From the NCBI GenBank assembly GCA_029287595.1, contig JARFQU010000137.1, positions 1-64,000 of the forward strand: a stretch of DNA of 64,000 nt, in the 5' to 3' direction. The notes beneath the pieces were generated by a model. It had not been told where the DNA came from and made no database searches. It worked only from the letters and a program-made list of their open reading frames with translations. Shown here in pieces: positions 1,480-63,223 of this stretch (the stretch's first letter is position 1; each line of letters opens with the position of its first letter). A program made the translations under genes and the position numbers. The DNA comes from Halioglobus sp. GTDB lineage: Bacteria > Pseudomonadota > Gammaproteobacteria > Pseudomonadales > Halieaceae.

Positions 1480-2973
1480 TTAGTCTGTAGGCGGAAGTCG
1501 GTCGTAATGCGCGAGCAGGGCATGGATGCGCTGTACCAGGTCCCGCGGCACCTGGGTCCAGTCGAAGCGCCACCGCCAGTTGCCCCGGGTGGTGCCCGGT
1601 GTATTCATGCGATGGCGACCATCCAGGCCCAGGAAATCCTGCCAGGGCACGATGGCGGTTGTTGCCGGGGAGGCCATGGCCTGGGCGATCAGCATCCAGG
1701 GCATGTCTTCCCGGGGGTGGTTGAAGTACTTGTATACCCTGGCGCGCAACTCCTCAGTGAGGCTTTCGAACCAGCCCAGGGTGGTGTCGTTGTCGTGGGT
1801 GCCGGTGTAGACGATATCTCCCTGGCTGTGGCGATGACTGAGATAGGGGTTCTCGGGGTTGCCGTCAAAGGCGAATTGCAGGATCAGCATGCCCGGCAAC
1901 GAGAACTCGTGGCGCAGCTCCTCGACCTCGGCGCTGATAGTCCCGAGATTTTCCGCCACCAGGCGCAGTTGTGGGTAGCGCTCGCGCACCGCGCGCAGCA
2001 GTTCCCTGCCTGGCGTCTGCACCCACTTGCCGGTCTTGGCAGAGGTCGCAGCCGCGGGGATCTCCCAGTAGGCTTCCAGTGCGCGAAAATGATCAATACG
2101 TGCGATATCAAACTGCCGTGCCGCGGAGTCAAAGCGCTGTAGCCACCAGCTGAAACCGTCCGCCTGCATGCGCTGCCAGTTGTACTGTGGGTTGCCCCAC
2201 AATTGTCCTTCGGCGGAGAAATAATCCGGCGGCACGCCGGTTACCGTCACCGGCTGGCCCTGGGCATCCAGGTCGAACAGACTCTGGTGCGCCCAGACAT
2301 CGGCGCTTTCCTGGTGCACGAAGATAGGTATGTCGCCGAACAGCAGTACGCCGCGTGCGTTGGCGTAACGGCGCAACTCGTGCCACTGGCAGTGGAATAC
2401 GAACTGGCGAAAACGCAGTGCGGAAATCGCCTCCGCCAGCTCCAGTGCGCGCCTGTCGCAGGCGCCGGGTTCGAAGTCACGCAGGCCCGGGGGCCAGCTT
2501 GTCCAGGGGCGGCGCTGCTCGGCGTCGCGAAACGCCTGGAAACGCACATAGTCTTCCAGCCAGAAGGCCGATTCGTCCAGGAATTGCTGGTAGGCGGATA
2601 GCATGGGTGCATCTGCGGAACTCTGCACCTGTGTCATGAACGCGGCGGCGGCGCTGGTCAGTGCCTGGCGCTTGGCCTCGGGGCTGGCGCATCCGGTGCC
2701 GGCCTGTTCCGGTGTCAGCCAGCCCTTGTCAACCAGCCACTCCAGGTCGATCAGGTCAGGGTTGCCCGCGTGTACCGAGAAACTCTGGTAGGGGCAGCCG
2801 TCATCATGGGTGGGGCCCAGGGGCAGTACTTGCCAGATCTGCAGGCCCGCCTGGGCAATCAGGTCGACAAAGCGACGCGCCTGGTCGCCGAAGTCTCCGC
2901 AATAACCCTGCCCCGGCAGGCTGCTGGGGTGCAACAGCACGCCCGCCCGGCGCCGGTCGGTCAGCGTATGCAT
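1480..2973 (-). CDS. malQ: 4-alpha-glucanotransferase (amylomaltase, GH77)
   Basis: Transfers alpha-1,4-glucan segments between maltooligosaccharides, recycling short chains left by glycogen breakdown; cytoplasmic. The 497-residue protein carries the GH77 signature from the N terminus (GVLLHPSSLPG at 11-21) and the catalytic triad: nucleophile Asp294 in ARIDHFRALE, acid/base Glu341 in VAENLG and Asp394 in GTHDND. The frame extends about 60 codons upstream, but that part is not family-like. The ATG at 2973 overlaps the stop of the upstream GH57 gene (ATGA), so the two are translationally coupled. It is the last gene of the glgC-GH57-malQ operon. Confidence 0.95.
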   Translation of the reverse strand: MHTLTDRRRAGVLLHPSSLPGQGYCGDFGDQARRFVDLIAQAGLQIWQVLPLGPTHDDGCPYQSFSVHAGNPDLIDLEWLVDKGWLTPEQAGTGCASPEAKRQALTSAAAAFMTQVQSSADAPMLSAYQQFLDESAFWLEDYVRFQAFRDAEQRRPWTSWPPGLRDFEPGACDRRALELAEAISALRFRQFVFHCQWHELRRYANARGVLLFGDIPIFVHQESADVWAHQSLFDLDAQGQPVTVTGVPPDYFSAEGQLWGNPQYNWQRMQADGFSWWLQRFDSAARQFDIARIDHFRALEAYWEIPAAATSAKTGKWVQTPGRELLRAVRERYPQLRLVAENLGTISAEVEELRHEFSLPGMLILQFAFDGNPENPYLSHRHSQGDIVYTGTHDNDTTLGWFESLTEELRARVYKYFNHPREDMPWMLIAQAMASPATTAIVPWQDFLGLDGRHRMNTPGTTRGNWRWRFDWTQVPRDLVQRIHALLAHYDRLPPTD

Positions 2974-4664
2974 CAGTCCTTCTCGCTGTGACGCATCACA
3001 CCGCCACGCGAGGGTTGGCCACCCCCGCGGGAAATAATATCTGTCAGGTAGGATGGCGCCTCTACATGGATCATCTGGTAAAGGTTGGCCAGGTGCATGC
3101 GGTAGAGCTGGTCGAACTGGCCCACCGTTTCCGAGGGATTGTAGTCGCCAAACCACCAGAACCAGTCGGAGCCCTCGCAGATCGCCAGTTGTTTCTCCGC
3201 CGCTGCGATCTCCTCCTGACTCAGCTTGCCACTGCTCACCTGGGTGTCGAAGCAGCGCTTGGCTTCCACCAGTAGATCCCAGCCGCGGTTCTTGTCCGCG
3301 TCGCCTATCCAGGTGGAGAACGTGCCATAGACCCAGCTGCCCGCAACCAGCCTGTCTTCCCTGGCAGGCTGCGGCTTATTATTGTCCAGGAAATCGCCGA
3401 AGGTGGTCAGCTCCAGGTTGGGATTTTCGTCCAGGCTCTGGTAGAGCTGTTGCAGGAAGTAGTAGCCGTTTTCAGGGTAGTATTCCCAGGCATTTTCACC
3501 GTCAAGAATGATACTGATCAGGCAGTCGTCGCGATCCGGACAGAGCTCGGCGATGTGCTCCATGTGCCCGACCAGGTTGGCCACCGCGTCTTCCGCATGC
3601 CAGTCAGAATAGGTGAACCCGATAAGATCCGATAAACCGTCATCGCGGAAAATACAGTCGATGGCCGCATCCCCGAAGCGGTAAACCCGGTGGCTGCAAG
3701 ATTTGTTCTGCGCATCGTGGCTGTTATCAAGTACGCTGCCGCCGCTGGCTACCCACTGGAAGCCGTCTTCTGCAAACAGCGCCAGGGCCTCCTGGCTGAC
3801 GCCACCTTCGGAGGGCCACAGGCCCTTGGGCTCGTGGCCGAATACCCGTTGAAATGTCTCCCGGCCCTGGCGCAGGTGCCAGCGGGCGCGCTCCTCGCCC
3901 CCCGGGTATTTATCTGCCACCGGCAGGTGCGCCTCCGGCATGGCTTCCCTGGCGCTGCCCAGATCCAGTAACAGGGGCACTATGGGGTGGGCATAGGGGC
4001 TCATGCACAGCTCCACCTGGCCGCGCTGGCTCAGTTCCCGGTAGCGCGGCACGATACCTCGTAGTTGTTCCAGGATGATCTGCAGCAGGTCGCGGCGGTC
4101 GTGCACGGTGAAGTTGCAGGCTTTGTCTTCCAACTGCGCGACGCGTGGATCGTTGCGCCGTGTGGATTCCGCCAGCCAGCTCAGGTGGTACCACACCAGC
4201 AGGTCCGCGAGAAACTGGTTGGAGGCGTAGATCAGGTTGTCGGGATGTTCCTTGTACCACTCTGCCATGGTGGCCAGTCGCTGGTAGGGCGGAAACCTGT
4301 CTATCATGCGCTCGCGGTTGGCGCGCAGGCAGTCCTGCATCAGGCGCAGCCGTGCACCGGCATTACCCGGCAGGGCGGGCTCCGCCAGTTCCGCCAGTAC
4401 CGGATCGCGGATGGCGCCGTGTCCTTCCAGGTAGGCGGAGATTTGCTCTACGTAATCCTCTGTCTGTTCCAGCAGGATAGGCGCGAAATTCACCACCGCC
4501 CTGGCGCCGGGCACCAGTTCCAGGTGTGCCGCCATGTCCACGTAATCCTTAATGGCATGCAGGTAGGTCCACGGCAGGTGGATGACGCCGGTGCGCAGGT
4601 CGCGGTACTCCGGTTGGTGCATATGCCAGCACAGCACCACGCTCATCGGTTTGTCAGCGTGCAT
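2973..4664 (-). CDS. GH57 family alpha-glucanase (alpha-amylase/branching type)
   Basis: Retaining alpha-glucan hydrolase or transglycosidase of family GH57, 563 residues, cytoplasmic (no signal peptide). Seen motifs: HMHQPEY at 14-20 (conserved region 1), GLWPSEGGVS at 281-290 holding the likely nucleophile Glu286, and IILDGENAWEYY around 385-396 holding the likely acid/base Asp388. The ATG at 4664 is chosen because AGAGG lies 7 bases upstream; it overlaps the end of glgC by 11 bases. An internal ATG six codons later lacks a ribosome site. Sitting between glgC and malQ, it probably trims or debranches glycogen, the job glgX does elsewhere; no glgX is present in this window. Exact specificity (amylase, amylopullulanase or second branching enzyme) cannot be told from sequence alone. 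Confidence 0.9.
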   Translation of the reverse strand: MHADKPMSVVLCWHMHQPEYRDLRTGVIHLPWTYLHAIKDYVDMAAHLELVPGARAVVNFAPILLEQTEDYVEQISAYLEGHGAIRDPVLAELAEPALPGNAGARLRLMQDCLRANRERMIDRFPPYQRLATMAEWYKEHPDNLIYASNQFLADLLVWYHLSWLAESTRRNDPRVAQLEDKACNFTVHDRRDLLQIILEQLRGIVPRYRELSQRGQVELCMSPYAHPIVPLLLDLGSAREAMPEAHLPVADKYPGGEERARWHLRQGRETFQRVFGHEPKGLWPSEGGVSQEALALFAEDGFQWVASGGSVLDNSHDAQNKSCSHRVYRFGDAAIDCIFRDDGLSDLIGFTYSDWHAEDAVANLVGHMEHIAELCPDRDDCLISIILDGENAWEYYPENGYYFLQQLYQSLDENPNLELTTFGDFLDNNKPQPAREDRLVAGSWVYGTFSTWIGDADKNRGWDLLVEAKRCFDTQVSSGKLSQEEIAAAEKQLAICEGSDWFWWFGDYNPSETVGQFDQLYRMHLANLYQMIHVEAPSYLTDIISRGGGQPSRGGVMRHSEKD

Positions 4665-52835: not shown

Positions 52836-54956
52836 ATGCCATACCAGACACTGTTATCTCCAGGGCGCATTGGCAAGCTGGATATCCGTAACCGTATGGT
52901 GGTTACCGCGATGGGCGCGAACCTGTCCGAAGCGGGTGGTCACTGGGGTGAGAGGATACTGGCCTACCATGAAGAGCAGGCGCGTGGCGGTGCCGGACTG
53001 ATCATCTCCGGCGCCTGCGGTGTGATGTATCCAATAGGGCAGGTCCAGGAGTGGCAGCTTGCCATTTCCACTGACGAGCATATACCCGGTCTCAAACGGG
53101 TAGTGGACGCAGTACATAGTCACGGGGCCTGTTTCGCGGTGCAGTTGCACCAGGGCGGTTTGAACAGCGTGGATGATACGGTAGGCGGGCGACCACAGTG
53201 GTGCCCCTCGGTGCCGGAGCCTTCATACGGTGACTTTGCCGACGGTCTGCTCATGTCCGAGCTGGAAGTGCTGGCCAGCATCGGTATGCCCACCTATAAG
53301 GTGATGGATAAAGAGGACATCGACGCTCTCGTGCAGGCTTTCGCTGCAGGTGCGCGACGGGCGCAAGCGGCAGGTTGCGATGCGGTTGAGGTACATGGCG
53401 GCCACGGTTATGTGCCTTCCTCTTTTTTGTCACCAAAAACAAACCAGCGCAGTGACGAATACGGCGGCAGCCTGGAAAACCGTGCGCGGTTGCTGCTCGA
53501 AATCGTCCGCGCGGTGCGTGCAGAGCTTGGTGCCGATTTCCCGGTGATAGTAAAAATTGATTCCCGCGAGGTCGGGAAAGAGGGCGGTATATCGCTAGAG
53601 GATGCGACGGTCACAGCGCAATGGCTGCAACAGGCGGGTGCCGATGCGATTACCGTCAGTGCCTACCATGAATTTGGACAGGGCAAACTGCATTCGGCAT
53701 CCAATATTCCCCATGAGCCGAATACCAACCTGCCCGCCGCAGCTGCCATCAGGAAAGTGCTTTCAATACCCGTTATCGCCTCGGGCCGGGTTGAGCCCGA
53801 GCACGCCGATAGTGAGATCAGCAAGGGCAGCTTCGATTTTCTCGCCATGGGCCGCAAAATCCTCGCTGATCCTCATCTGCCGCGCAAAATAGCCCAGGGG
53901 AGTATTGGGGAGATCCGTCCCTGCGTTTACTGCTACACCTGCGTGAGCGCGATTTATACTCGCGAAAGAATGCGCTGCGCCGTCAATGCCGAATGCGGTT
54001 TTGAGTACCAGCGTGTGGCCAGGACAACAACCGCCAGCAAGAAGCGAGTGGCGGTAGTGGGAGGAGGTCCGGGTGGTATGGAGGCTGCCAGGCGGCTGGC
54101 CTCGGATGGCCACCAGGTGGTGCTGTTCGAAAGGTCAGGCAGGCTGGGGGGCACCTTGCGTTTCGCGTCACTTGCCTATGCGGCGAACGAGCGGCTACTC
54201 GACTGGTTGTGTCTGCAGGTAGAGGCCCATGATATCGAGGTGAGACTGAAGACCCCGGCAACCCTGGAACTGATTAAAGCCTTGCAGCCGGATGCCGTGG
54301 TGGTCGCCACTGGGGCGCTGCGCTCCCTGCCGAGTATACCCGGTTGCGAGCTGCCCCACGTTTTCAGCGGCGATGACATGCGCGATCTGGTGCTGGGCTC
54401 TGGCACCGAGCGTCTTAAAACCAAGACCTCTGCCTTTACCCGGCTGGCGACCCGGGTCGGGTCATCCACCGGGCTCTCGGAAAACCTGGACTTTGTGCGC
54501 AAGGCGACCCACACCTGGATGCCGCTGGGGACAAATATCGTGATTATCGGCGGCGAGCTGGTGGGTATCGAACTGGCGGAGTTTCTGTGCGAGAGAGGGC
54601 GTAAGGTCACTGTGATCGACGATGCCCCGCGGTTTGGCGCGGGTCTTACCCTGGTGCGCCGCCTGCGCATTCTGGCAGAATTGCGCGAGCACGGTGTAGG
54701 TCTTTATCCCGGATCGAAGGATATTCGCATAGAGCCGGGACAGGTGGGTTTCACGGACAATACTGGCGCCGTGCTCACGGTGAGCGCTGACCAGGTGATT
54801 GTTGCCAGGGGAGCGACAGGGGATTCCTCACAGGCAGAGGCGTTGCGCGCTGCCGGCCTGCGTGTACATGAGGTCGGTGATGGCACCGGCGTAGGCTATA
54901 TCGAAGGCGCGATGCGTGATGCCATGGCCGCCGCGGATGCTATTGGCGCTGACTGA
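52836..54956 (+). CDS. Iron-sulfur old-yellow-enzyme family NADH:flavin oxidoreductase
   Basis: 706-residue FMN/FAD/[4Fe-4S] protein like 2,4-dienoyl-CoA reductase, trimethylamine dehydrogenase and baiCD enone reductases. TIM-barrel OYE domain (LLSPGRIGKLDIRNRMVVTA; GHGYVPSSFLSPKTNQRSD), cluster ligands Cys363, 366, 369 and 381 (CxxCxxC-x11-C), then FAD motif GGGPGG at 409-414 and a second dinucleotide fold (VIIGGELVGIELAEFL). It probably reduces a carbon-carbon double bond next to a carbonyl. Terminal gene of the SDR-tetR-OYE operon. Confidence 0.92.
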   Translation: MPYQTLLSPGRIGKLDIRNRMVVTAMGANLSEAGGHWGERILAYHEEQARGGAGLIISGACGVMYPIGQVQEWQLAISTDEHIPGLKRVVDAVHSHGACFAVQLHQGGLNSVDDTVGGRPQWCPSVPEPSYGDFADGLLMSELEVLASIGMPTYKVMDKEDIDALVQAFAAGARRAQAAGCDAVEVHGGHGYVPSSFLSPKTNQRSDEYGGSLENRARLLLEIVRAVRAELGADFPVIVKIDSREVGKEGGISLEDATVTAQWLQQAGADAITVSAYHEFGQGKLHSASNIPHEPNTNLPAAAAIRKVLSIPVIASGRVEPEHADSEISKGSFDFLAMGRKILADPHLPRKIAQGSIGEIRPCVYCYTCVSAIYTRERMRCAVNAECGFEYQRVARTTTASKKRVAVVGGGPGGMEAARRLASDGHQVVLFERSGRLGGTLRFASLAYAANERLLDWLCLQVEAHDIEVRLKTPATLELIKALQPDAVVVATGALRSLPSIPGCELPHVFSGDDMRDLVLGSGTERLKTKTSAFTRLATRVGSSTGLSENLDFVRKATHTWMPLGTNIVIIGGELVGIELAEFLCERGRKVTVIDDAPRFGAGLTLVRRLRILAELREHGVGLYPGSKDIRIEPGQVGFTDNTGAVLTVSADQVIVARGATGDSSQAEALRAAGLRVHEVGDGTGVGYIEGAMRDAMAAADAIGAD

Positions 54957-54962
54957 GCGCGG

Positions 54963-55814
54963 CTAAGCCTCCGGTCTGAGTGCGAAAATCCTCACGCTGG
55001 CTGCATATTCGTTGGCATCGATGGTGTCCAGGAGTGCGCTCATCTGGTCGTGAAAGTTCGCCTCTTGTGGTTCTTCCGACGGGCTACAGCAGTCAGTCGA
55101 CGGACCGCAGCAGGCCGCAGCGCCGCCCGCGCGATAGGCATTGAGATCGGCCTGGGCGTCCTGGATGGTCACTTCGGTGAACCCTGCGCGCAGCAATTTT
55201 TCACGGTTGTCCTCGATGGTGAGGGCGCCGCCTATACAACCTGTCCAGGCGGACATTTCCTGCGCCACATGGGCCGGTAGCTCCTTGCGCAGCGCGATGT
55301 CGGAAATTGCCAGGCGGCCGCCGGGTTTGAGAATCCGGAACACTTCCGCCAGCGCGGCGTCTTTATCCTCACAAAGGTTCAGTACACAGTTGGAAATGAC
55401 ACAGTCCACCGAGCGACTGGGGATTGGCATCGCCTCTATCTCCGCCAGGTGAAAGCTGACGTTGTCGTAGTTCCCCTTGCGCGCGTTGGCTCGCGCCAGG
55501 GATATCATGTCTCCGGTCATGTCGATACCGATGGACCGCCCTGAAGGGCCGACCTGTCGGGCTGCCAGAAAGACATCCAGTCCGCCTCCCGAACCGAGGT
55601 CAACGACGACCTCGCCCTCACGGATTGAAGCCATGGCCACCGGGTTGCCGCAGGACAAGCCCATATTGGACTCCGCGGGAATACTACCCAGCTCTTCGTC
55701 GGAGTAGCCGAAAGCGTTGGCGATGCTGCGCACGCCGTCGTCGTGTGATCCCAGGCCCTGCTGTGCCACATTACCGTAGCCCTTGCGTACCGCGTCTGCT
55801 ATTGAATCTGTCAT
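54963..55814 (-). CDS. arsM: Arsenite methyltransferase
   Basis: 283-residue SAM-dependent As(III) methyltransferase. SAM motif VVDLGSGGGLD at 70-80 and the three conserved As-binding Cys: Cys55 (GLSCGNP), Cys143 (VISNCVLNLC) and Cys193 (WTGCIGG). A further pair of vicinal cysteines (ACC at 234-236, DCC at 241-243) lies in the C-terminal part and may bind arsenic too. Converts arsenite to methylated, partly volatile species. No arsR or arsB neighbour; convergent with the OYE gene, so it seems a stand-alone detox gene. Confidence 0.93.
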   Translation of the reverse strand: MTDSIADAVRKGYGNVAQQGLGSHDDGVRSIANAFGYSDEELGSIPAESNMGLSCGNPVAMASIREGEVVVDLGSGGGLDVFLAARQVGPSGRSIGIDMTGDMISLARANARKGNYDNVSFHLAEIEAMPIPSRSVDCVISNCVLNLCEDKDAALAEVFRILKPGGRLAISDIALRKELPAHVAQEMSAWTGCIGGALTIEDNREKLLRAGFTEVTIQDAQADLNAYRAGGAAACCGPSTDCCSPSEEPQEANFHDQMSALLDTIDANEYAASVRIFALRPEA

Positions 55815-57103: not shown

Positions 57104-57316
57104 TTACAGCGCCGGGGGGCTGGGTTTTGTTATTGTCGTTCCTCTTGGGGTTAACGATGAGCGACACCATAGCCTAACCGTTTTGTAGCTGACAGAGATC
57201 CCACGCTCGGCGAGTAGATCTTCAACATCTCGATGGTTGAGATTGAGGCGATAGTAGAGCCAGACGGCGTAACTGGTGATGTCAGGCGGAAATCGGTGTC
57301 GTTTGTAGCGAGTCAT
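57104..57316 (-). pseudogene. IS6-family transposase N-terminal remnant
   Basis: 70 residues. The first 52 (RHRFPPDITSYAVWLYYRL then NHRDVEDLLAERGISVSYKT and VRLWCR) match the start of IS6/IS26-family transposases. After RLWCR the homology stops and the frame ends in a short unrelated tail. The DDE catalytic core is missing, so it cannot transpose. I see no convincing inverted-repeat end nearby. It marks a past insertion at the left edge of the accessory stretch. Confidence 0.8.
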
Positions 57317-57350: not shown

Positions 57351-58994
57351 CTAGTACTGGCTCAGGAAGTCGCAAGGGCACAACTCAATACATTTACCGC
57401 AGCCCTCGCAAATGTCGCTGTCGAATACGAAGTAGTTGCCCGGTGAGGGGTCTTCAACCGGCGTGAAGCTTCCCGCATTGCAGTACATCCAGCACTGGTA
57501 GCAGCCGAGGCACGAACCACAGGACAAGCAGCGCTCGACTTCCTTGAGAAATTCAGCGTCGCTGATAGTCGCCCTTACTTCCAGTCCGGGATTGTGCAAG
57601 CGCAGACCGGGGTCGGTCTCCTGGTCCTCAACACGGTCGGATAAGGCAGAGCGCTCGGACTTGACCAGTGGCTTGCGGTGATCGGTCGGGTCTGCGAGCT
57701 CTACCGGATTGCAGGCTTGCAGTGCGGCGCGCTTTCCCTCGGCGATAGCTGCGCTTGCTATACCCAGGTGCAGCACATCACCGCCGAAACTGACGCGGTT
57801 TTCTGCGGACTCGACACCGTTTGACGCACCGGGATGGGGCGCAATGTCCTCCAACCCGCGCAAGTCCGCCTCCTGGGAGACTGCAACGATCACGGAGGTG
57901 GCTGGCAATTCAAAGGTTCTTCCCGGAATGGGTTCCGGAACGTGGCGTCCGTCCCCCTCCAGGGCTCCTGGACGCATACGTTGCACGACGAGCCCGCGCA
58001 ACTCGCCCGACTGGGTGCGCAGGACCTCCACCGGGGTGGCCAGGTCCATAAATTCTACGCCCTCGTCAACTGCCTCTTTTATTTCTGCTTCAATGGCCGG
58101 CATCTCTTGCAGGGTTCGCCGGTAGAGGACCGTTACCTGCGCCCCACACCTGCGTCCGACGCGAGCGACGTCAATGGCGGTATTGCCGCCGCCGACTACG
58201 GCGAGATGATCCCCCGCAGAGAGCGGCCGCCCGGTATTGTAACGTTCGAGGAAATCCGTACCCGTCCACACGCCGGGGCCGCGTTCCCCCGGCACATGAA
58301 GCATACGTGCCTGTTGCGCACCGAGACCGAAAAACAGGTGCTGATGGCGCTCCCTCAATTCAGTCAGAGTCAGGTCTGTGCCAATGCGGACGTCGGCATA
58401 TACCTCCACGCCCAGTTCGACGATACGCTGGATTTCCGCATCCAGCACGCTGCGCGGCAAGCGGTATTCAGGAACCCCGTAGCGCAGCATTCCGCCAGCT
58501 TCTGGATGCCAGTCATAGACGCAGACAGCATGACCGCGACGAGCAACCTGGTAGGCATAGGATAATCCAGCGGGGCCTGCACCGATCACGCCGAAGGAGA
58601 GTGGATCCTCAGTCGGTTCCAGCCGCGGCAGTTTCAGGCCGTGATCCAGCGCCCAATCGCCAAGGTAGCGCTCCAGGCTGCTCACGGCGACGGCCGAGTC
58701 TCTGTCGCTCCGGGTGCACTGTGTCTCACAGGGATGGGGGCAAATCCTGCCCATGACCGCGGGAAAGGGGTTGTTGTCCACGATCAGTTCCCACGCCCGG
58801 GTGTATGCATCACGCTTGGACAGTCCCAGGTGTGTCCGCTGTGCTATGGGGGCAATCCAGTCACGGATGCTGGTCCCACAGGGGCAATTGTCCTGGCAGG
58901 GGGCGACTTTCGATGCCTGCTCCGGTCGCAGCGGCCGAAACAGGAATTCCTCCGCTGTGGGCGAAGGATGGGAATCAGATGTATCGGCTTTCAT
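57351..58994 (-). CDS. GltD-like FAD/NAD(P)H oxidoreductase with C-terminal 2x[4Fe-4S] ferredoxin
   Basis: 547 residues. N-terminal Cys cluster (C33, C37, C39 and C85, C89, C93) as in the glutamate-synthase small subunit, FAD fold VIGAGPAG at 136-143 and NAD(P) fold VVGGGNTAIDVARVG at 266-280. The C terminus carries a ferredoxin-like domain with C489, C492, C495, C498, C501, C505 and then C529, C532, C535, C539. It should pass electrons from NAD(P)H through flavin to iron-sulfur clusters. Glutamate synthase large subunit is not present, so it must serve another partner: the flavoprotein in the same operon is the candidate. It ends 34 bases before the IS6 remnant, so its last residues may have been changed by that insertion. 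Start overlaps the CNBD stop by 4 bases. Confidence 0.88.
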   Translation of the reverse strand: MKADTSDSHPSPTAEEFLFRPLRPEQASKVAPCQDNCPCGTSIRDWIAPIAQRTHLGLSKRDAYTRAWELIVDNNPFPAVMGRICPHPCETQCTRSDRDSAVAVSSLERYLGDWALDHGLKLPRLEPTEDPLSFGVIGAGPAGLSYAYQVARRGHAVCVYDWHPEAGGMLRYGVPEYRLPRSVLDAEIQRIVELGVEVYADVRIGTDLTLTELRERHQHLFFGLGAQQARMLHVPGERGPGVWTGTDFLERYNTGRPLSAGDHLAVVGGGNTAIDVARVGRRCGAQVTVLYRRTLQEMPAIEAEIKEAVDEGVEFMDLATPVEVLRTQSGELRGLVVQRMRPGALEGDGRHVPEPIPGRTFELPATSVIVAVSQEADLRGLEDIAPHPGASNGVESAENRVSFGGDVLHLGIASAAIAEGKRAALQACNPVELADPTDHRKPLVKSERSALSDRVEDQETDPGLRLHNPGLEVRATISDAEFLKEVERCLSCGSCLGCYQCWMYCNAGSFTPVEDPSPGNYFVFDSDICEGCGKCIELCPCDFLSQY

Positions 58995-59383
58995 GAATTA
59001 CCTCCCGATAGCATGTCCAACTGGTGTTTCAGATGAGCGATGGTGTTGTCCAGGTTTCGCACCCGGTGGCAGAGCACCTCCAATACGCTGATGGCGAGGG
59101 AGGGGTCCTCCTGTATCCGACGCATAAAGGTCTTACGGTCGATGGTAATGGCGCGAACCGTGCCACGGGCTCTCACCGTTGATGAGCGGACCGTGTTTTC
59201 CACGATTGCCATCTCCCCAAAAAGTTCGCCAGATTCCATGGTATCGACGACCGTCGCTTCTCCTTCTTCGTTACGAATTACGTCAGCGGTCCCGTGCTGG
59301 ATGATGAACATGCAGTCCCCAACCTCACCTTCGGTGACGATGTCCTCTCCGTCATGGTAGACGCGGCCCAGTTCGCCGATCAC
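58991..59383 (-). CDS. Stand-alone cyclic-nucleotide-binding domain protein
   Basis: 130 residues, a single cNMP-binding beta-roll with no DNA-binding helix-turn-helix. The phosphate-binding cassette GELFGEMAIVENTVRSSTV (52-70) keeps Glu57 and Arg66, which hold the ribose and phosphate in cAMP- or cGMP-binding proteins, so ligand binding is plausible. A C-terminal helix (LDNTIAHLKHQLDML) looks like a coiled coil for dimer or partner contact. Overlaps both neighbours by 4 bases (ATGA), so it is made with them in fixed ratio and may regulate their activity. Confidence 0.88.
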   Translation of the reverse strand: MIGELGRVYHDGEDIVTEGEVGDCMFIIQHGTADVIRNEEGEATVVDTMESGELFGEMAIVENTVRSSTVRARGTVRAITIDRKTFMRRIQEDPSLAISVLEVLCHRVRNLDNTIAHLKHQLDMLSGGNS

Positions 59384-60900
59384 GTTGCAGTGACCTCAGG
59401 TTTCTTGCCGGTTGGGATTCGCAGATTGGCCGCGCAGAGATTCCACATCAGGCGAGCGATGAAAACCGGGTGGAGTGTGCGCAGGAATACTTCCTTGTAG
59501 GGCGCACTGCCGGTGAATACATCCCACAATACGCTGCTCATGCGGGGTACAACATTGGCATCATTTTGTTCCTGCTCGGTCATGCGCAAGACTGAGCGCC
59601 TCGCGAAGGCAAGCTTCTGTATGAGATGGCAAACACCGAAAACGCACTTTCCCATCAGGTTGTCGATGATGATTTTTCGGCATGCTGGCCAATAGTGCTT
59701 TTCTAGATCGCTGGAGGAAAAACCGTACAGTGAGACACAATTAGCGGCTGCTTTCGCGGTACGGTAGGCCGATCCGATCCCGTCTTTATAAAGTCTGGCA
59801 ACGCCGCTGTCGCCAATAAAGATCAGGCGATCGGCATAGGGCCTGCGCGCCTGGGACACGTTCAGTCGCGGGAAACACTGACAGATATTGGGTGGTGGGC
59901 GCCGCTCCGGAAAACATTTCCTGACCTCTTCGGCATTTAAAAACGCGTTTACCAGTGCCTCGTCGACCTTATCGCCGAGCATGACCAGTGTGACGTAATC
60001 TCCTTTTGGAATCAGCGCGGCGAATTGCAGGTGCGGTAAATCCAGCAGGAACACGTGCATCGAGTTGCCAAGGTGTCGTTCCACGGCATCTGCCCCGAGT
60101 TTGAACTCGGCCACGAAAGATTTCGCCGCCTTGGGGCGTACGAAACCGCACCCTGTCTGCTCAACCATACTCAGGAGAGCACTGTTGAGCCCGCTGGCTA
60201 TCACCAGTAGGTCGTAATTCTCGCTGCGACCGTCTGCCAGCGTAAGTTCCGGCCTCCCGGTGGTAAAGTCTACCGAGGTCACCATCTGTGGACGTAGATT
60301 GGCCCCCAGGCGCGTAGCCCTCTGCAACAGGTGTTGATCAAAGCCTGGAATGTTGGAAATCTCAGAGTTTTTCGGCCCGTGGCCCCTATACACTGCTGCG
60401 ATTCGTTTTTCCTGCAGCGGAGTGTCTATTCTCACGCTGCCAACATCCATATGCATCACATAAGAGTCGATGCCCCGCTGCACGGTTTCGTCGGGAAGAA
60501 CGATTCCCTCCGCCGCCAGAAGTTGAACCAGGGATTCGGAGACCACCCCGCCGCAGTGGTTGCAGCCAGCGGGTCCACAGAAATCGAAATTTCGGGGCTC
60601 AAATATGTCTAATTCGATGCTGGTGCCGGTACGGTTCAGCGTCTTGAGGAGAAATTGGGCGAATAGGGAGCCAGCTGGTCCGCCGCCGATCACGGCGACG
60701 CGGCTACCCTCAGATAACCGGAAATCGTCGCTATATGCTCGAGTTTCCGTGCTGGTAGATGATGATCCAGCGGTGCCGCCGGATAGCCAGGAGTTCGGGT
60801 CGGTTAGTATCCGGATCGCTTCGGGTTCAATGGGAGCGGGTTCCTGCCTCCCGTCGCCACCGTCAGCGCCTGGAATATCGTCAGTACGCTCGTAGCTCAT
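59380..60900 (-). CDS. Geranylgeranyl-reductase-like FAD flavoprotein
   Basis: 506 residues. A disordered Ser/Thr-rich head (1-60), FAD fold VAVIGGGPAGSLFAQFL at 68-84, and the second FAD segment FIGDSGVARLYKDGIGSAY at 361-379, in the arrangement of geranylgeranyl reductases and related flavoproteins. A Cys-rich insert FDFCGPAGCNHCGGVVSE (C108, C113, C116) after the first fold may hold a metal or cluster or a redox disulfide. The C terminus is hydrophobic and could bind a membrane. Head gene of the operon with the CNBD and GltD-like genes, so its electrons may come from the latter. Substrate unknown: isoprenoid or polyene lipid is a guess. Confidence 0.8.
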   Translation of the reverse strand: MSYERTDDIPGADGGDGRQEPAPIEPEAIRILTDPNSWLSGGTAGSSSTSTETRAYSDDFRLSEGSRVAVIGGGPAGSLFAQFLLKTLNRTGTSIELDIFEPRNFDFCGPAGCNHCGGVVSESLVQLLAAEGIVLPDETVQRGIDSYVMHMDVGSVRIDTPLQEKRIAAVYRGHGPKNSEISNIPGFDQHLLQRATRLGANLRPQMVTSVDFTTGRPELTLADGRSENYDLLVIASGLNSALLSMVEQTGCGFVRPKAAKSFVAEFKLGADAVERHLGNSMHVFLLDLPHLQFAALIPKGDYVTLVMLGDKVDEALVNAFLNAEEVRKCFPERRPPPNICQCFPRLNVSQARRPYADRLIFIGDSGVARLYKDGIGSAYRTAKAAANCVSLYGFSSSDLEKHYWPACRKIIIDNLMGKCVFGVCHLIQKLAFARRSVLRMTEQEQNDANVVPRMSSVLWDVFTGSAPYKEVFLRTLHPVFIARLMWNLCAANLRIPTGKKPEVTAT

Positions 60901-60991: not shown

Positions 60992-62440
60992 TCACCCCTG
61001 GCGGGATTCGATGTACTTCTGGAACACCCCCATGATGAATCGATGCATGGCAGCCTGAGTGGCGAGGTAGAAGTGCCAGGGCAGCGCCGGCGCGAAATCG
61101 TGAATCGCGATCATGGCATATCTGCCCCCCAGTACCTCGCGAAACTCCATGCGCCCGCGCTGATTTCGGGCGCGGGAGGCCAGCAGGCCTCCCGTGATGA
61201 AGTAGATTCGCCGTTCGCTGCTGCTGCGTTCGGGCCTCAATTCCAGTTGTAGGAGACAAATTCCCAGACACGTAATGCGTATAAAGTTGGATGAATCCGG
61301 GTGTTCACTGCAGCGGACTAATGGGTGAAGATAAGCAGTAAGCCAATTGAAATAGCGTTTAGAGAGCCAGGCGGCATCTCGCCCCATGGGCAGTCTTACC
61401 CGCTGAATCGAGCGCACCGTGTTTGCAGATCGGAGTTGCTCGTCATGTCGGTGTATCAACTTGCGGCGAAAACGTACAGCCTGGCGCAAGCCCTCGTTGT
61501 TCCCTGCCTGTTGGAGTGCGGTCAGCGCAGGCTGCAGCGTCGGCTGAAGGATCTGCTGCAGGGGATTGTCGCTGGCGATCGAATCGAATTGCAGGTTTTC
61601 GACAAAAAGTTGAAGTGCTTCGGGGTGCGCACCTGGGCGTATTCGCCGCAACCGCCGGGCGTATTGTGATGGCGACAGCTGCCCTACCTGAGAGATCCCT
61701 GGCTGACAGTCCAGGAGTTCCGCGGTTTTTTCAAGGAACTGTTGCCAATCGAGAATGTCGGGCCCGCCGATGTCGAAGTTGCCCGTAAATCTTGCGGGCT
61801 GGCACAGGCAATGAGCGAATGCCTGGGCCAGGTCATGAGTCGCGATCGGCTGCATCTTGTGCAGGCTCCATTCGGGCACTGGTAAAAAGCGGGATTGACT
61901 GACCAGGTTTCTTATCAGCCTGATGATAGCGCTACCCGGCTCGATGACCAGGCTGGAGCACAGCACAGTGAGTGGCGTTCTGTAGGAGGCAAGAACTTCC
62001 CCGATCTGGTGGTGTCTATTCTGAGCTTCTTGTCTCATTGTCGCCGCCGGCAGGAGTGAACGCAGGCAGAAGATATGCTCGACGCCGTTGATCTCTGCTG
62101 CCCGGGCGAAATTCTCCGCCATCAGGAGATCCATGTCGCCGCAATTGGCCTGGTGGAAACGGGAATTGGGTAGCCCGGAGTGCGCGAGGAATATCGCAAA
62201 TTTCGAACCGGCGAGAATGCGGGTCAACTCGTTCAGGGAGAACAGGTCACAGTGTCGCCACGCGACGTGAGGCTCGCGCTCTCCGGCGCTCGCGCGGGTC
62301 TCAATACCTGTCACTGCGAGTATGTCATACATTCTAGACAACTCACGGCACAAGGCTTCCCCAATGCTGCCGGCAGCGCCGACAATAGCCACGCGAGCTC
62401 TGGTCGGTTTCGGTTTGTTTCTTTGGGCCAGCGTTTTCAT
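60992..62440 (-). CDS. YbjT-like NAD-epimerase/NmrA + DUF2867 protein
   Basis: 482 residues, the size of E. coli YbjT. N-terminal Rossmann segment RVAIVGAAGSIGEALCRELS at 16-35 (GxxGxxG), NmrA-type sequence FDIGGPDILDWQQFLEK in the middle, and a C-terminal DUF2867 domain (GICLLQLELRPERSS; MEFREVLGGRYAMIAIHDFAP). Function of YbjT is not firmly known. ATG 62440 is chosen since GAGG sits 9 bases upstream; earlier in-frame ATGs at 62473 and 62482 lack one. It lies 91 bases upstream of the redox operon, in the same direction. Confidence 0.82.
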   Translation of the reverse strand: MKTLAQRNKPKPTRARVAIVGAAGSIGEALCRELSRMYDILAVTGIETRASAGEREPHVAWRHCDLFSLNELTRILAGSKFAIFLAHSGLPNSRFHQANCGDMDLLMAENFARAAEINGVEHIFCLRSLLPAATMRQEAQNRHHQIGEVLASYRTPLTVLCSSLVIEPGSAIIRLIRNLVSQSRFLPVPEWSLHKMQPIATHDLAQAFAHCLCQPARFTGNFDIGGPDILDWQQFLEKTAELLDCQPGISQVGQLSPSQYARRLRRIRPGAHPEALQLFVENLQFDSIASDNPLQQILQPTLQPALTALQQAGNNEGLRQAVRFRRKLIHRHDEQLRSANTVRSIQRVRLPMGRDAAWLSKRYFNWLTAYLHPLVRCSEHPDSSNFIRITCLGICLLQLELRPERSSSERRIYFITGGLLASRARNQRGRMEFREVLGGRYAMIAIHDFAPALPWHFYLATQAAMHRFIMGVFQKYIESRQG

Positions 62441-62571
62441 GTGGCAGCGCCTCGCTCGCCGATGGGTCGACATCTGCTCCAACGGCTCTCTCGCGTGCCG
62501 GTTGCCGCCCGGGCGAATGAAGTATAAGGAAAATTGGCAGGCTTTTCACAGCAGGTCGTCTGCCGGAGGAT

Positions 62572-62842: not shown

Positions 62843-63223
62843 TTGCATGATGACGTGACCCACCAGGAAGCACCCATCCACGAGGGTATCAAGCAGAAAG
62901 TGGTCGAGATGGACGAGAACCAGACCCGTCTCATCTTCCGAACCTACAAGAATACCGCGCGGGTATACCGCAATGGCATTGCCGATGAAGTTGAAGCGAT
63001 TGAAGCCAGTGGTGGCGATTTTGGCCAGGTGCACCACCTGGTATCCGGTGCTTACCAGGAAAAAGCCTGGAGCACCGGGGATATCGAGGCCGGCATGGTC
63101 ACCGTTGGCATGTGTGGTGGCCTGATCAATGACATCCCAACCTGCGAGGAGTTGGTCAACAATATCGTGACTGATGCCGAGGAAATTATCCGCAGCCGTC
63201 TGGCGGGTATCGTCGCGAGCTGA
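62843..63223 (+). pseudogene. 5'-truncated nitronate monooxygenase
   Basis: 126 residues starting at a TTG. From residue 7 on, HQEAPIHEGIKQKVVEMDEN, QTRLIFRTYKNTARVYRN and YETGDIEAGMVTVG-like sequence (here WSTGDIEAGMVTVGMCGGLI) match the last third of NMO/2-nitropropane-dioxygenase family proteins. The FMN-binding barrel strands are missing, so it cannot be active alone. Homology starts abruptly 17 bases after the Fic remnant's stop, showing a rearrangement junction. Confidence 0.75.

What the first reader, a model, noticed from the sequence alone, without database searches (positions are those of the whole stretch)
57351..60900. Coupled three-gene redox operon: GltD-like Fe-S oxidoreductase, lone cNMP-binding domain, GGR-like flavoprotein
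Seen: three genes overlap by 4 bases each. The first protein joins an FAD/NAD(P)H module to a 10-Cys ferredoxin-like tail; the second is only a cyclic-nucleotide domain with intact Glu57/Arg66; the third is a geranylgeranyl-reductase-like flavoprotein with a three-Cys insert. Known: archaeal geranylgeranyl reductase from Methanosarcina needs a ferredoxin partner to saturate lipids. Inference: NAD(P)H electrons flow through the Fe-S tail to the GGR-like protein to reduce an unsaturated lipid or pigment, with cAMP or cGMP as an allosteric switch. I know of no described system with this make-up.
Basis: partly seen in the sequence, partly recalled or inferred. Interest (0 to 1): 0.72.

Follow-up and report, generated by a model that had tools for sequence, protein, structure and literature searches.

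The report
Flavoprotein paired with cyclic-nucleotide sensor
Three overlapping bacterial genes encode an apparently undescribed, four-cysteine redox flavoprotein, the cyclic-nucleotide sensor it travels with across distant bacteria, and an electron-feeding partner found only in this family; this suggests cAMP or cGMP may act directly on a redox enzyme.

Summary
The operon is real. On the minus strand the order is GGR-like (60900..59380), lone CNBD (59383..58991), GltD-like (58994..57351), with two 4-bp overlaps. The trio occurs in all four Halieaceae genomes that carry this GGR type, and nowhere else searched. The conserved core is the GGR-CNBD pair. In a 63-locus survey, 33 of 46 short GGRs have a CNBD within 900 bp, against about 1 expected and 0 of 17 in a sister clade. 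The CNBD partner takes four architectures: lone downstream, CNBD-GGDEF upstream, CNBD-HD-GYP, or one joined reading frame. The joined case lies directly downstream of a tandem class III cyclase gene. The flavoprotein is a remote GGR relative: it keeps the GGR active-site cysteine, lost the YxWxFP tryptophan, and has four invariant cysteines (C113, C116, C340, C342) in 63 of 63 members. The GltD-like protein is not the glutamate synthase subunit. Best reading: a cNMP-gated FAD reductase with a four-cysteine redox or metal site, fed here by NAD(P)H through the GltD-like Fe-S protein. Lipid or pigment as substrate is unproven and weakened. I found no description in the open literature held. cNMP binding, the metal site and the electron route are inferred.

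The parts
59380..60900 (-). GGR-like FAD flavoprotein, 506 aa, first gene of the operon
   Evidence: ORF; best NCBIfam match TIGR02032 at 44.6 bits, below cut-off; profile-profile match to canonical GGRs, probability 99.4, E 1.3e-21
60553..60564 (-). C113-x2-C116 motif (GCNHCGG); C116 corresponds to Cys47 of archaeal GGR
   Evidence: Invariant in 63 of 63 family members; aligned to canonical KxCGGG by hhalign
59875..59883 (-). C340-x-C342 motif (CQC), second half of a possible four-cysteine site
   Evidence: Invariant in 63 of 63 family members; not a feature of the canonical GGR alignment A4
58991..59383 (-). Lone cyclic-nucleotide-binding domain protein, 130 aa, with long C-terminal helix
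   Evidence: PF00027 71.2 bits; AF2 model pLDDT 75.7, Foldseek matches CRP, PKA-R, Bd1971
59174..59221 (-). Phosphate-binding cassette F55-V70 (FGEMAIVENTVRSSTV) with Glu57 and Arg66
   Evidence: Read directly; Glu and Arg both kept in 26 of 34 GGR-linked CNBDs
57351..58994 (-). GltD-like NAD(P)H/FAD/Fe-S oxidoreductase, 547 aa
   Evidence: NF009410 PRK12771 468.5 bits (cut-off 516) over nearly the full length; Fer4_20 and Pyr_redox_2
57372..57530 (-). C-terminal Fe-S tail with 11 cysteines (C489 to C541)
   Evidence: Cysteine positions; cysteine-rich tail retained in the three Halieaceae homologues
60992..62482 (-). Upstream NAD(P)-binding (Epimerase-like) protein, 496 aa, possible accessory gene
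   Evidence: Homologue upstream of the same trio in Seongchinamella unica (L015 8451-9923), not in the other two Halieaceae
57164..57316 (-). Remnant of a transposase N-terminus downstream of the operon
   Evidence: Translation matches a remnant beside the Seongchinamella cassette (L015 7776-8159)

Best explanation
This is a cyclic-nucleotide-gated flavin redox enzyme. The GGR-like protein binds FAD and carries a site of four invariant cysteines (C113, C116, C340, C342), which probably hold an Fe-S cluster or another metal, or act as a dithiol pair, next to the flavin. The lone CNBD protein is its dedicated regulatory subunit: it binds cAMP or cGMP and switches the flavoprotein's activity or assembly. 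In Halieaceae a GltD-type protein takes electrons from NAD(P)H through FAD and its Fe-S tail and passes them to the flavoprotein. Shown here: the operon, the deep GGR-CNBD partnership, the invariant cysteines, the intact cNMP cassette, and that the GltD-like protein is not the GOGAT subunit. Inferred: FAD and metal content, cNMP binding, the direction of control, the electron route and the substrate (unknown).
For: Partnership: 33 of 46 short GGR loci have a CNBD within 900 bp, 0 of 17 of the long sister clade (Fisher p 1.2e-7), about 0.8 expected by chance. It covers the main branches of the short clade in four partner architectures. One actinobacterial MAG carries both in a single 719-aa frame, directly downstream of a gene with two class III cyclase domains. 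A profile of Halieaceae and actinobacterial partner CNBDs ranks a GGR-adjacent CNBD first in 12 of 18 genomes of a distant class that have 19-52 CNBDs each. Cysteines: 63 of 63; C116 aligns with the catalytic GGR cysteine (PMC10821996). cNMP: PF00027 plus intact Glu/Arg, fold like CRP, PKA-R and cAMP-sensing Bd1971 (PMC6717892); class III cyclases in the own genome. Electron feeder: trio in 4 of 4 Halieaceae with a short GGR, 4-bp overlaps kept in three, separate GltB/GltD.
Against: No biochemistry. The AF2 model of the flavoprotein is poor (pLDDT 43.8), so proximity of the four cysteines to each other and to FAD is not shown. 8 of 34 partner CNBDs have lost the Glu and some also the Arg, so cNMP binding is not universal. 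13 of 46 short GGRs have no CNBD close by. The GltD-like partner is missing outside Halieaceae, so other lineages must use another donor. The joined frame has an internal ATG after an AGAGGAGGA stretch, so it may be a lost stop codon in one MAG.
Confidence: 0.5

Rival explanations
1. The flavoprotein is a redox or metabolite sensor and the CNBD protein is the signalling side. Redox state of FAD and cysteines is passed to the CNBD partner, which in other lineages carries GGDEF or HD-GYP output domains, linking redox state to cAMP and c-di-GMP signalling.
For: Partners with c-di-GMP-type domains: CNBD-GGDEF upstream in 11 loci, CNBD-HD-GYP in 4. The loss of the YxWxFP tryptophan and the four invariant cysteines suit a sensor.
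Against: The GGDEF signature is degenerate (RFGEDQF, RFGADRF, RYAEDRF), so those partners are probably not cyclases. The window's CNBD has no output domain, and the co-transcribed NAD(P)H-Fe-S feeder suits an enzyme better.
Confidence: 0.25
2. One reading: NAD(P)H electrons pass through the GltD-like Fe-S tail to a true geranylgeranyl-reductase-type enzyme that saturates an isoprenoid lipid, quinone tail or pigment, with cAMP or cGMP as switch.
For: Remote homology to GGRs across the whole FAD and substrate domain; the catalytic cysteine is kept; archaeal GGRs often sit near ferredoxin genes (PMC10821996); a long-form paralogue in the own genome lies tail-to-tail with a UbiA prenyltransferase.
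Against: Score 44.6 bits against a 158.8 cut-off for GG-red-SF while real GGRs passed; the YxWxFP tryptophan is Ala or Ser in 63 of 63; no isoprenoid biosynthesis gene seen in the operon itself.
Confidence: 0.2
3. The neighbourhood is a hitch-hiking or chance association, for example of a mobile cassette, with no functional link.
For: Patchy in Halieaceae (4 of 140 genomes); transposase remnants beside two of the cassettes; second-class genomes are rich in CNBD genes (19-52 each).
Against: 33 of 46 against about 0.8 expected and 0 of 17 in the sister clade; recurrent rearrangement with the same partner type; partner CNBDs form their own subfamily.
Confidence: 0.03
4. The GltD-like protein is the small subunit of a glutamate synthase encoded elsewhere.
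For: Shares the GltD fold and Fer4_20 domain.
Against: The same genome has a full GltB (1491-aa frame) with its own GltD homologue next to it on contig C45, as do G400 and G401; the window protein is 34% identical to that one and has an extra Fe-S tail.
Confidence: 0.02

Closest known systems
Geranylgeranyl reductase superfamily (TIGR02032; [quoted passage not shown]
   Same: FAD-binding GGGPAG motif, conserved active-site cysteine (Cys47 position), co-linear profile alignment over 308 columns
   Different: Below the family cut-off; YxWxFP tryptophan replaced by Ala/Ser; extra C113 and a CxC motif; RxYKDGI after the GD motif; genetically tied to CNBD proteins
Bd1971, cAMP-sensing EAL phosphodiesterase of Bdellovibrio (PMC6717892)
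   Same: CRP/PKA-type CNBD that controls an enzyme; among the best structural and sequence matches of the window CNBD
   Different: There the CNBD is fused to a c-di-GMP phosphodiesterase; here it is a separate protein beside a flavoprotein
PRK12771 / NF009410 NAD(P)-binding protein (GltD-type with C-terminal ferredoxin tail)
   Same: Near full-length match including the Fe-S tail
   Different: 468.5 bits against a cut-off of 516; sits in an operon with GGR-like and CNBD genes
CRP/FNR regulators
   Same: CNBD and long C-helix fold
   Different: No DNA-binding domain in 130 aa

Membership tests
Geranylgeranyl reductase family | Curated family score (TIGR02032, 158.8 bits) | tested here: not met
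   Window protein 44.6 bits, relatives 29.9-35.2 bits; control GGRs 218.3 and 247.3 bits
Geranylgeranyl reductase family | Active-site cysteine (Cys47 of S. acidocaldarius GGR) | tested here: met
   C116 aligns with canonical KxCGGG cysteine; 63 of 63
Geranylgeranyl reductase family | YxWxFP substrate-positioning motif | tested here: not met
   FAALIP in its place; the W position is Ala or Ser in 63 of 63; motif described in PMC10821996 and PMC12004948
Geranylgeranyl reductase family | Reduces isoprenoid C=C with FAD | not testable with these tools
   Needs purified protein
Geranylgeranyl reductase family | GGR fold | tested here: inconclusive
   AF2 model with 4 sequences had pLDDT 43.8; not searched further
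Cyclic-nucleotide-binding domain proteins | PF00027 above cut-off | tested here: met
   71.2 bits against 27.5
Cyclic-nucleotide-binding domain proteins | Phosphate-binding cassette Glu and Arg | tested here: met
   E57 and R66; 26 of 34 linked CNBDs
Cyclic-nucleotide-binding domain proteins | Binds cAMP or cGMP | not testable with these tools
   Needs calorimetry or a crystal structure
CRP/FNR transcription factors | C-terminal DNA-binding helix-turn-helix | tested here: not met
   Only PF00027 in 130 aa; helix 94-126 ends the protein
Glutamate synthase small subunit (GltD) | Partner of a GltB large subunit | tested here: not met
   No GltB beside it; GltB and another GltD homologue adjacent at G000:C45
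PRK12771 NAD(P)-binding protein | Curated score 516 bits | tested here: not met
   468.5 bits over profile 40-560 of 566, so a close relative just below cut-off

The most novel reading that the evidence does not exclude
An undescribed family of FAD proteins with a built-in four-cysteine (possibly Fe-S) site forms dedicated complexes with cyclic-nucleotide-binding proteins in several bacterial lineages, so that cAMP or cGMP directly controls a redox enzyme rather than its transcription; in Halieaceae it has gained its own NAD(P)H-Fe-S electron feeder.
Probability: 0.4. Interest if true: 0.75.

Novelty: new variant of a known kind. Interest (0 to 1): 0.64.

Why it matters
Bacterial cAMP is best known for acting through transcription factors of the CRP type. 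A conserved flavoprotein-CNBD pair, kept across distant lineages and rearranged into several architectures, would be a direct route from cyclic nucleotides to redox metabolism. It also defines a flavoprotein family with a distinctive four-cysteine signature that current family models miss, and a small operon in a cultured bacterium (Seongchinamella unica) on which it can be tested.

Tried and rejected
PDB by sequence: the single protein found nothing; the profile found only short stretches of halogenases and monooxygenases. Plasmids and viral contigs: no relatives. Rest of the actinobacterial phylum: only short superfamily matches outside one order. Papers: no hit for a GGR-CNBD system. Canonical GGR, glutamate synthase subunit, and chance association: rejected or weakened as set out above. 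Laying the whole genome in the Python box was not possible.
Full report
What is there. The window carries three genes on the minus strand with 4-base overlaps: a 506-aa GGR-like protein (60900..59380), a 130-aa CNBD protein with a GTG start (59383..58991) and a 547-aa GltD-like protein (58994..57351). Domain scans confirm Fer4_20 plus Pyr_redox_2 and an Fe-S tail in the GltD-like protein, and PF00027 alone in the CNBD protein. Glu57 and Arg66 are as stated. The tail has 11 cysteines.

Is the trio conserved? A profile search of 140 genomes of the same family found the short GGR in four: this genome, Seongchinamella unica, a Haliea MAG and one more. All four have GGR, CNBD and GltD-like genes in this order, with 4-base overlaps at both junctions in three of them. 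An upstream NAD(P)-binding gene (60992..62482) is shared only with Seongchinamella. The second does not either: GltB and another GltD homologue lie together on contig C45 of the same genome, so the operon's protein is not the glutamate synthase subunit.

The core is the pair. Outside Halieaceae the GltD-like gene is absent but the GGR-CNBD link persists: in an actinobacterial MAG (L017) and in another class of the same phylum, whose genomes often carry two GGR copies. I fetched 63 loci. They fall into two clades: a long form with about 200 extra C-terminal residues (17 loci, no CNBD within the fetched flanks) and a short form (46 loci, plus the window). In the short form 33 of 46 have a CNBD domain within 900 bp; with 19-52 CNBD genes per genome in the second class and an assumed 3,600 genes, about 0.8 is expected. 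The partner takes four shapes: lone CNBD downstream; CNBD-GGDEF upstream, with a degenerate GGDEF signature; CNBD-HD-GYP beside it; and one joined 719-aa frame in MAG G1145. That joined frame has an internal ATG after AGAGGAGGA, so separate translation is also possible. It lies just downstream, on the same strand, of a gene with two class III cyclase domains followed by AAA and TPR-like parts, in an assembly with N gaps. A profile of the partner CNBDs (A5) ranks a GGR-adjacent CNBD first in 12 of 18 second-class genomes, so these CNBDs are a subfamily of their own and not a random pick. Related genomes are not independent, but the link appears in the main branches of the short clade.

What the flavoprotein is. 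Its best NCBIfam model is GG-red-SF at 44.6 bits, cut-off 158.8, while true GGRs scored 218 and 247. Profile-profile alignment to such GGRs gives probability 99.4 and E 1.3e-21 over 308 columns. In it C116 falls on the GGR catalytic cysteine (Cys47, PMC10821996), and C113 sits in a short insert before it. The YxWxFP motif, which lines the substrate up with the flavin (PMC12004948), reads FAALIP; the tryptophan position is Ala or Ser in 63 of 63. Four cysteines, C113-x2-C116 and C340-x-C342, are invariant in 63 of 63 including the long form. From the alignment I infer that both motifs lie near the isoalloxazine ring; the AF2 model was too poor to test this.

What the CNBD is. The AF2 model (pLDDT 75.7) has a CNBD beta-roll and a long C-helix, and matches CRP, PKA regulatory subunits and Bd1971. 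Bd1971 is a bacterial enzyme switched on by cAMP or cGMP through such a domain (PMC6717892). Glu and Arg of the cassette are both kept in 26 of 34 GGR-linked CNBDs, so some partners may have lost cNMP binding. The own genome has at least two class III cyclases.

How it most likely works. The CNBD protein binds cAMP or cGMP and sets the activity or assembly of the FAD protein; the FAD protein uses its flavin and four-cysteine site to reduce an unknown substrate; in Halieaceae NAD(P)H electrons arrive through the GltD-like Fe-S protein. The partnership is well supported (I would put it near 0.9). The cNMP ligand in this operon is likely (about 0.75), a metal or dithiol role of the cysteines about 0.6, the GltD-like electron feed about 0.6, and an isoprenoid substrate about 0.2-0.25. 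A sensor role for the flavoprotein, with the CNBD protein as output, remains a serious rival.

Novelty. Each domain is known; the pairing, the four-cysteine GGR-like family and the trio were not found in the open-access literature available. I rate it a new variant of a known kind: a CNBD-controlled enzyme with a new kind of enzyme.

Noticed in passing
L077 (G000:C59:1-6364), 2025-4085 minus: The own genome also has a long-form GGR-like paralogue (686 aa with a C-terminal domain of no Pfam match), tail-to-tail with a UbiA prenyltransferase and near multihaem cytochrome-like genes; same layout in L079.
   Followed up: partly
57164-57316 and L015:7776-8159: Remnants of the same transposase N-terminus lie downstream of the window's operon and upstream of the Seongchinamella cassette, which suggests transfer between Halieaceae.
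   Followed up: partly
L092, L094, L096, L102, L104, L107, L112, L113, L120: CNBD-GGDEF proteins upstream of GGR in the second class have degenerate GGDEF signatures (RFGEDQF, RFGADRF, RYAEDRF).
   Followed up: partly
L169:9166-13195 minus: Tandem class III cyclase - AAA - TPR gene (soluble-adenylyl-cyclase-like layout, interrupted by assembly Ns) directly upstream of the joined GGR-CNBD frame.
   Followed up: partly
second-class genomes, e.g. G605, G675, G536: 19-52 CNBD proteins per genome, unusually many; the class is unnamed here.
   Followed up: no
54963-55814 minus: Arsenite methyltransferase-like gene (NF008823, 275.9 bits, above cut-off).
   Followed up: no
52836-54956 plus: 706-aa Old-Yellow-Enzyme-type Fe-S flavoenzyme related to BaiCD and bilirubin reductase, below family cut-offs.
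   Followed up: no
62843-63223 plus: Short ORF (126 aa) matching only the C-terminal third of nitronate monooxygenase, apparently a gene remnant.
   Followed up: no
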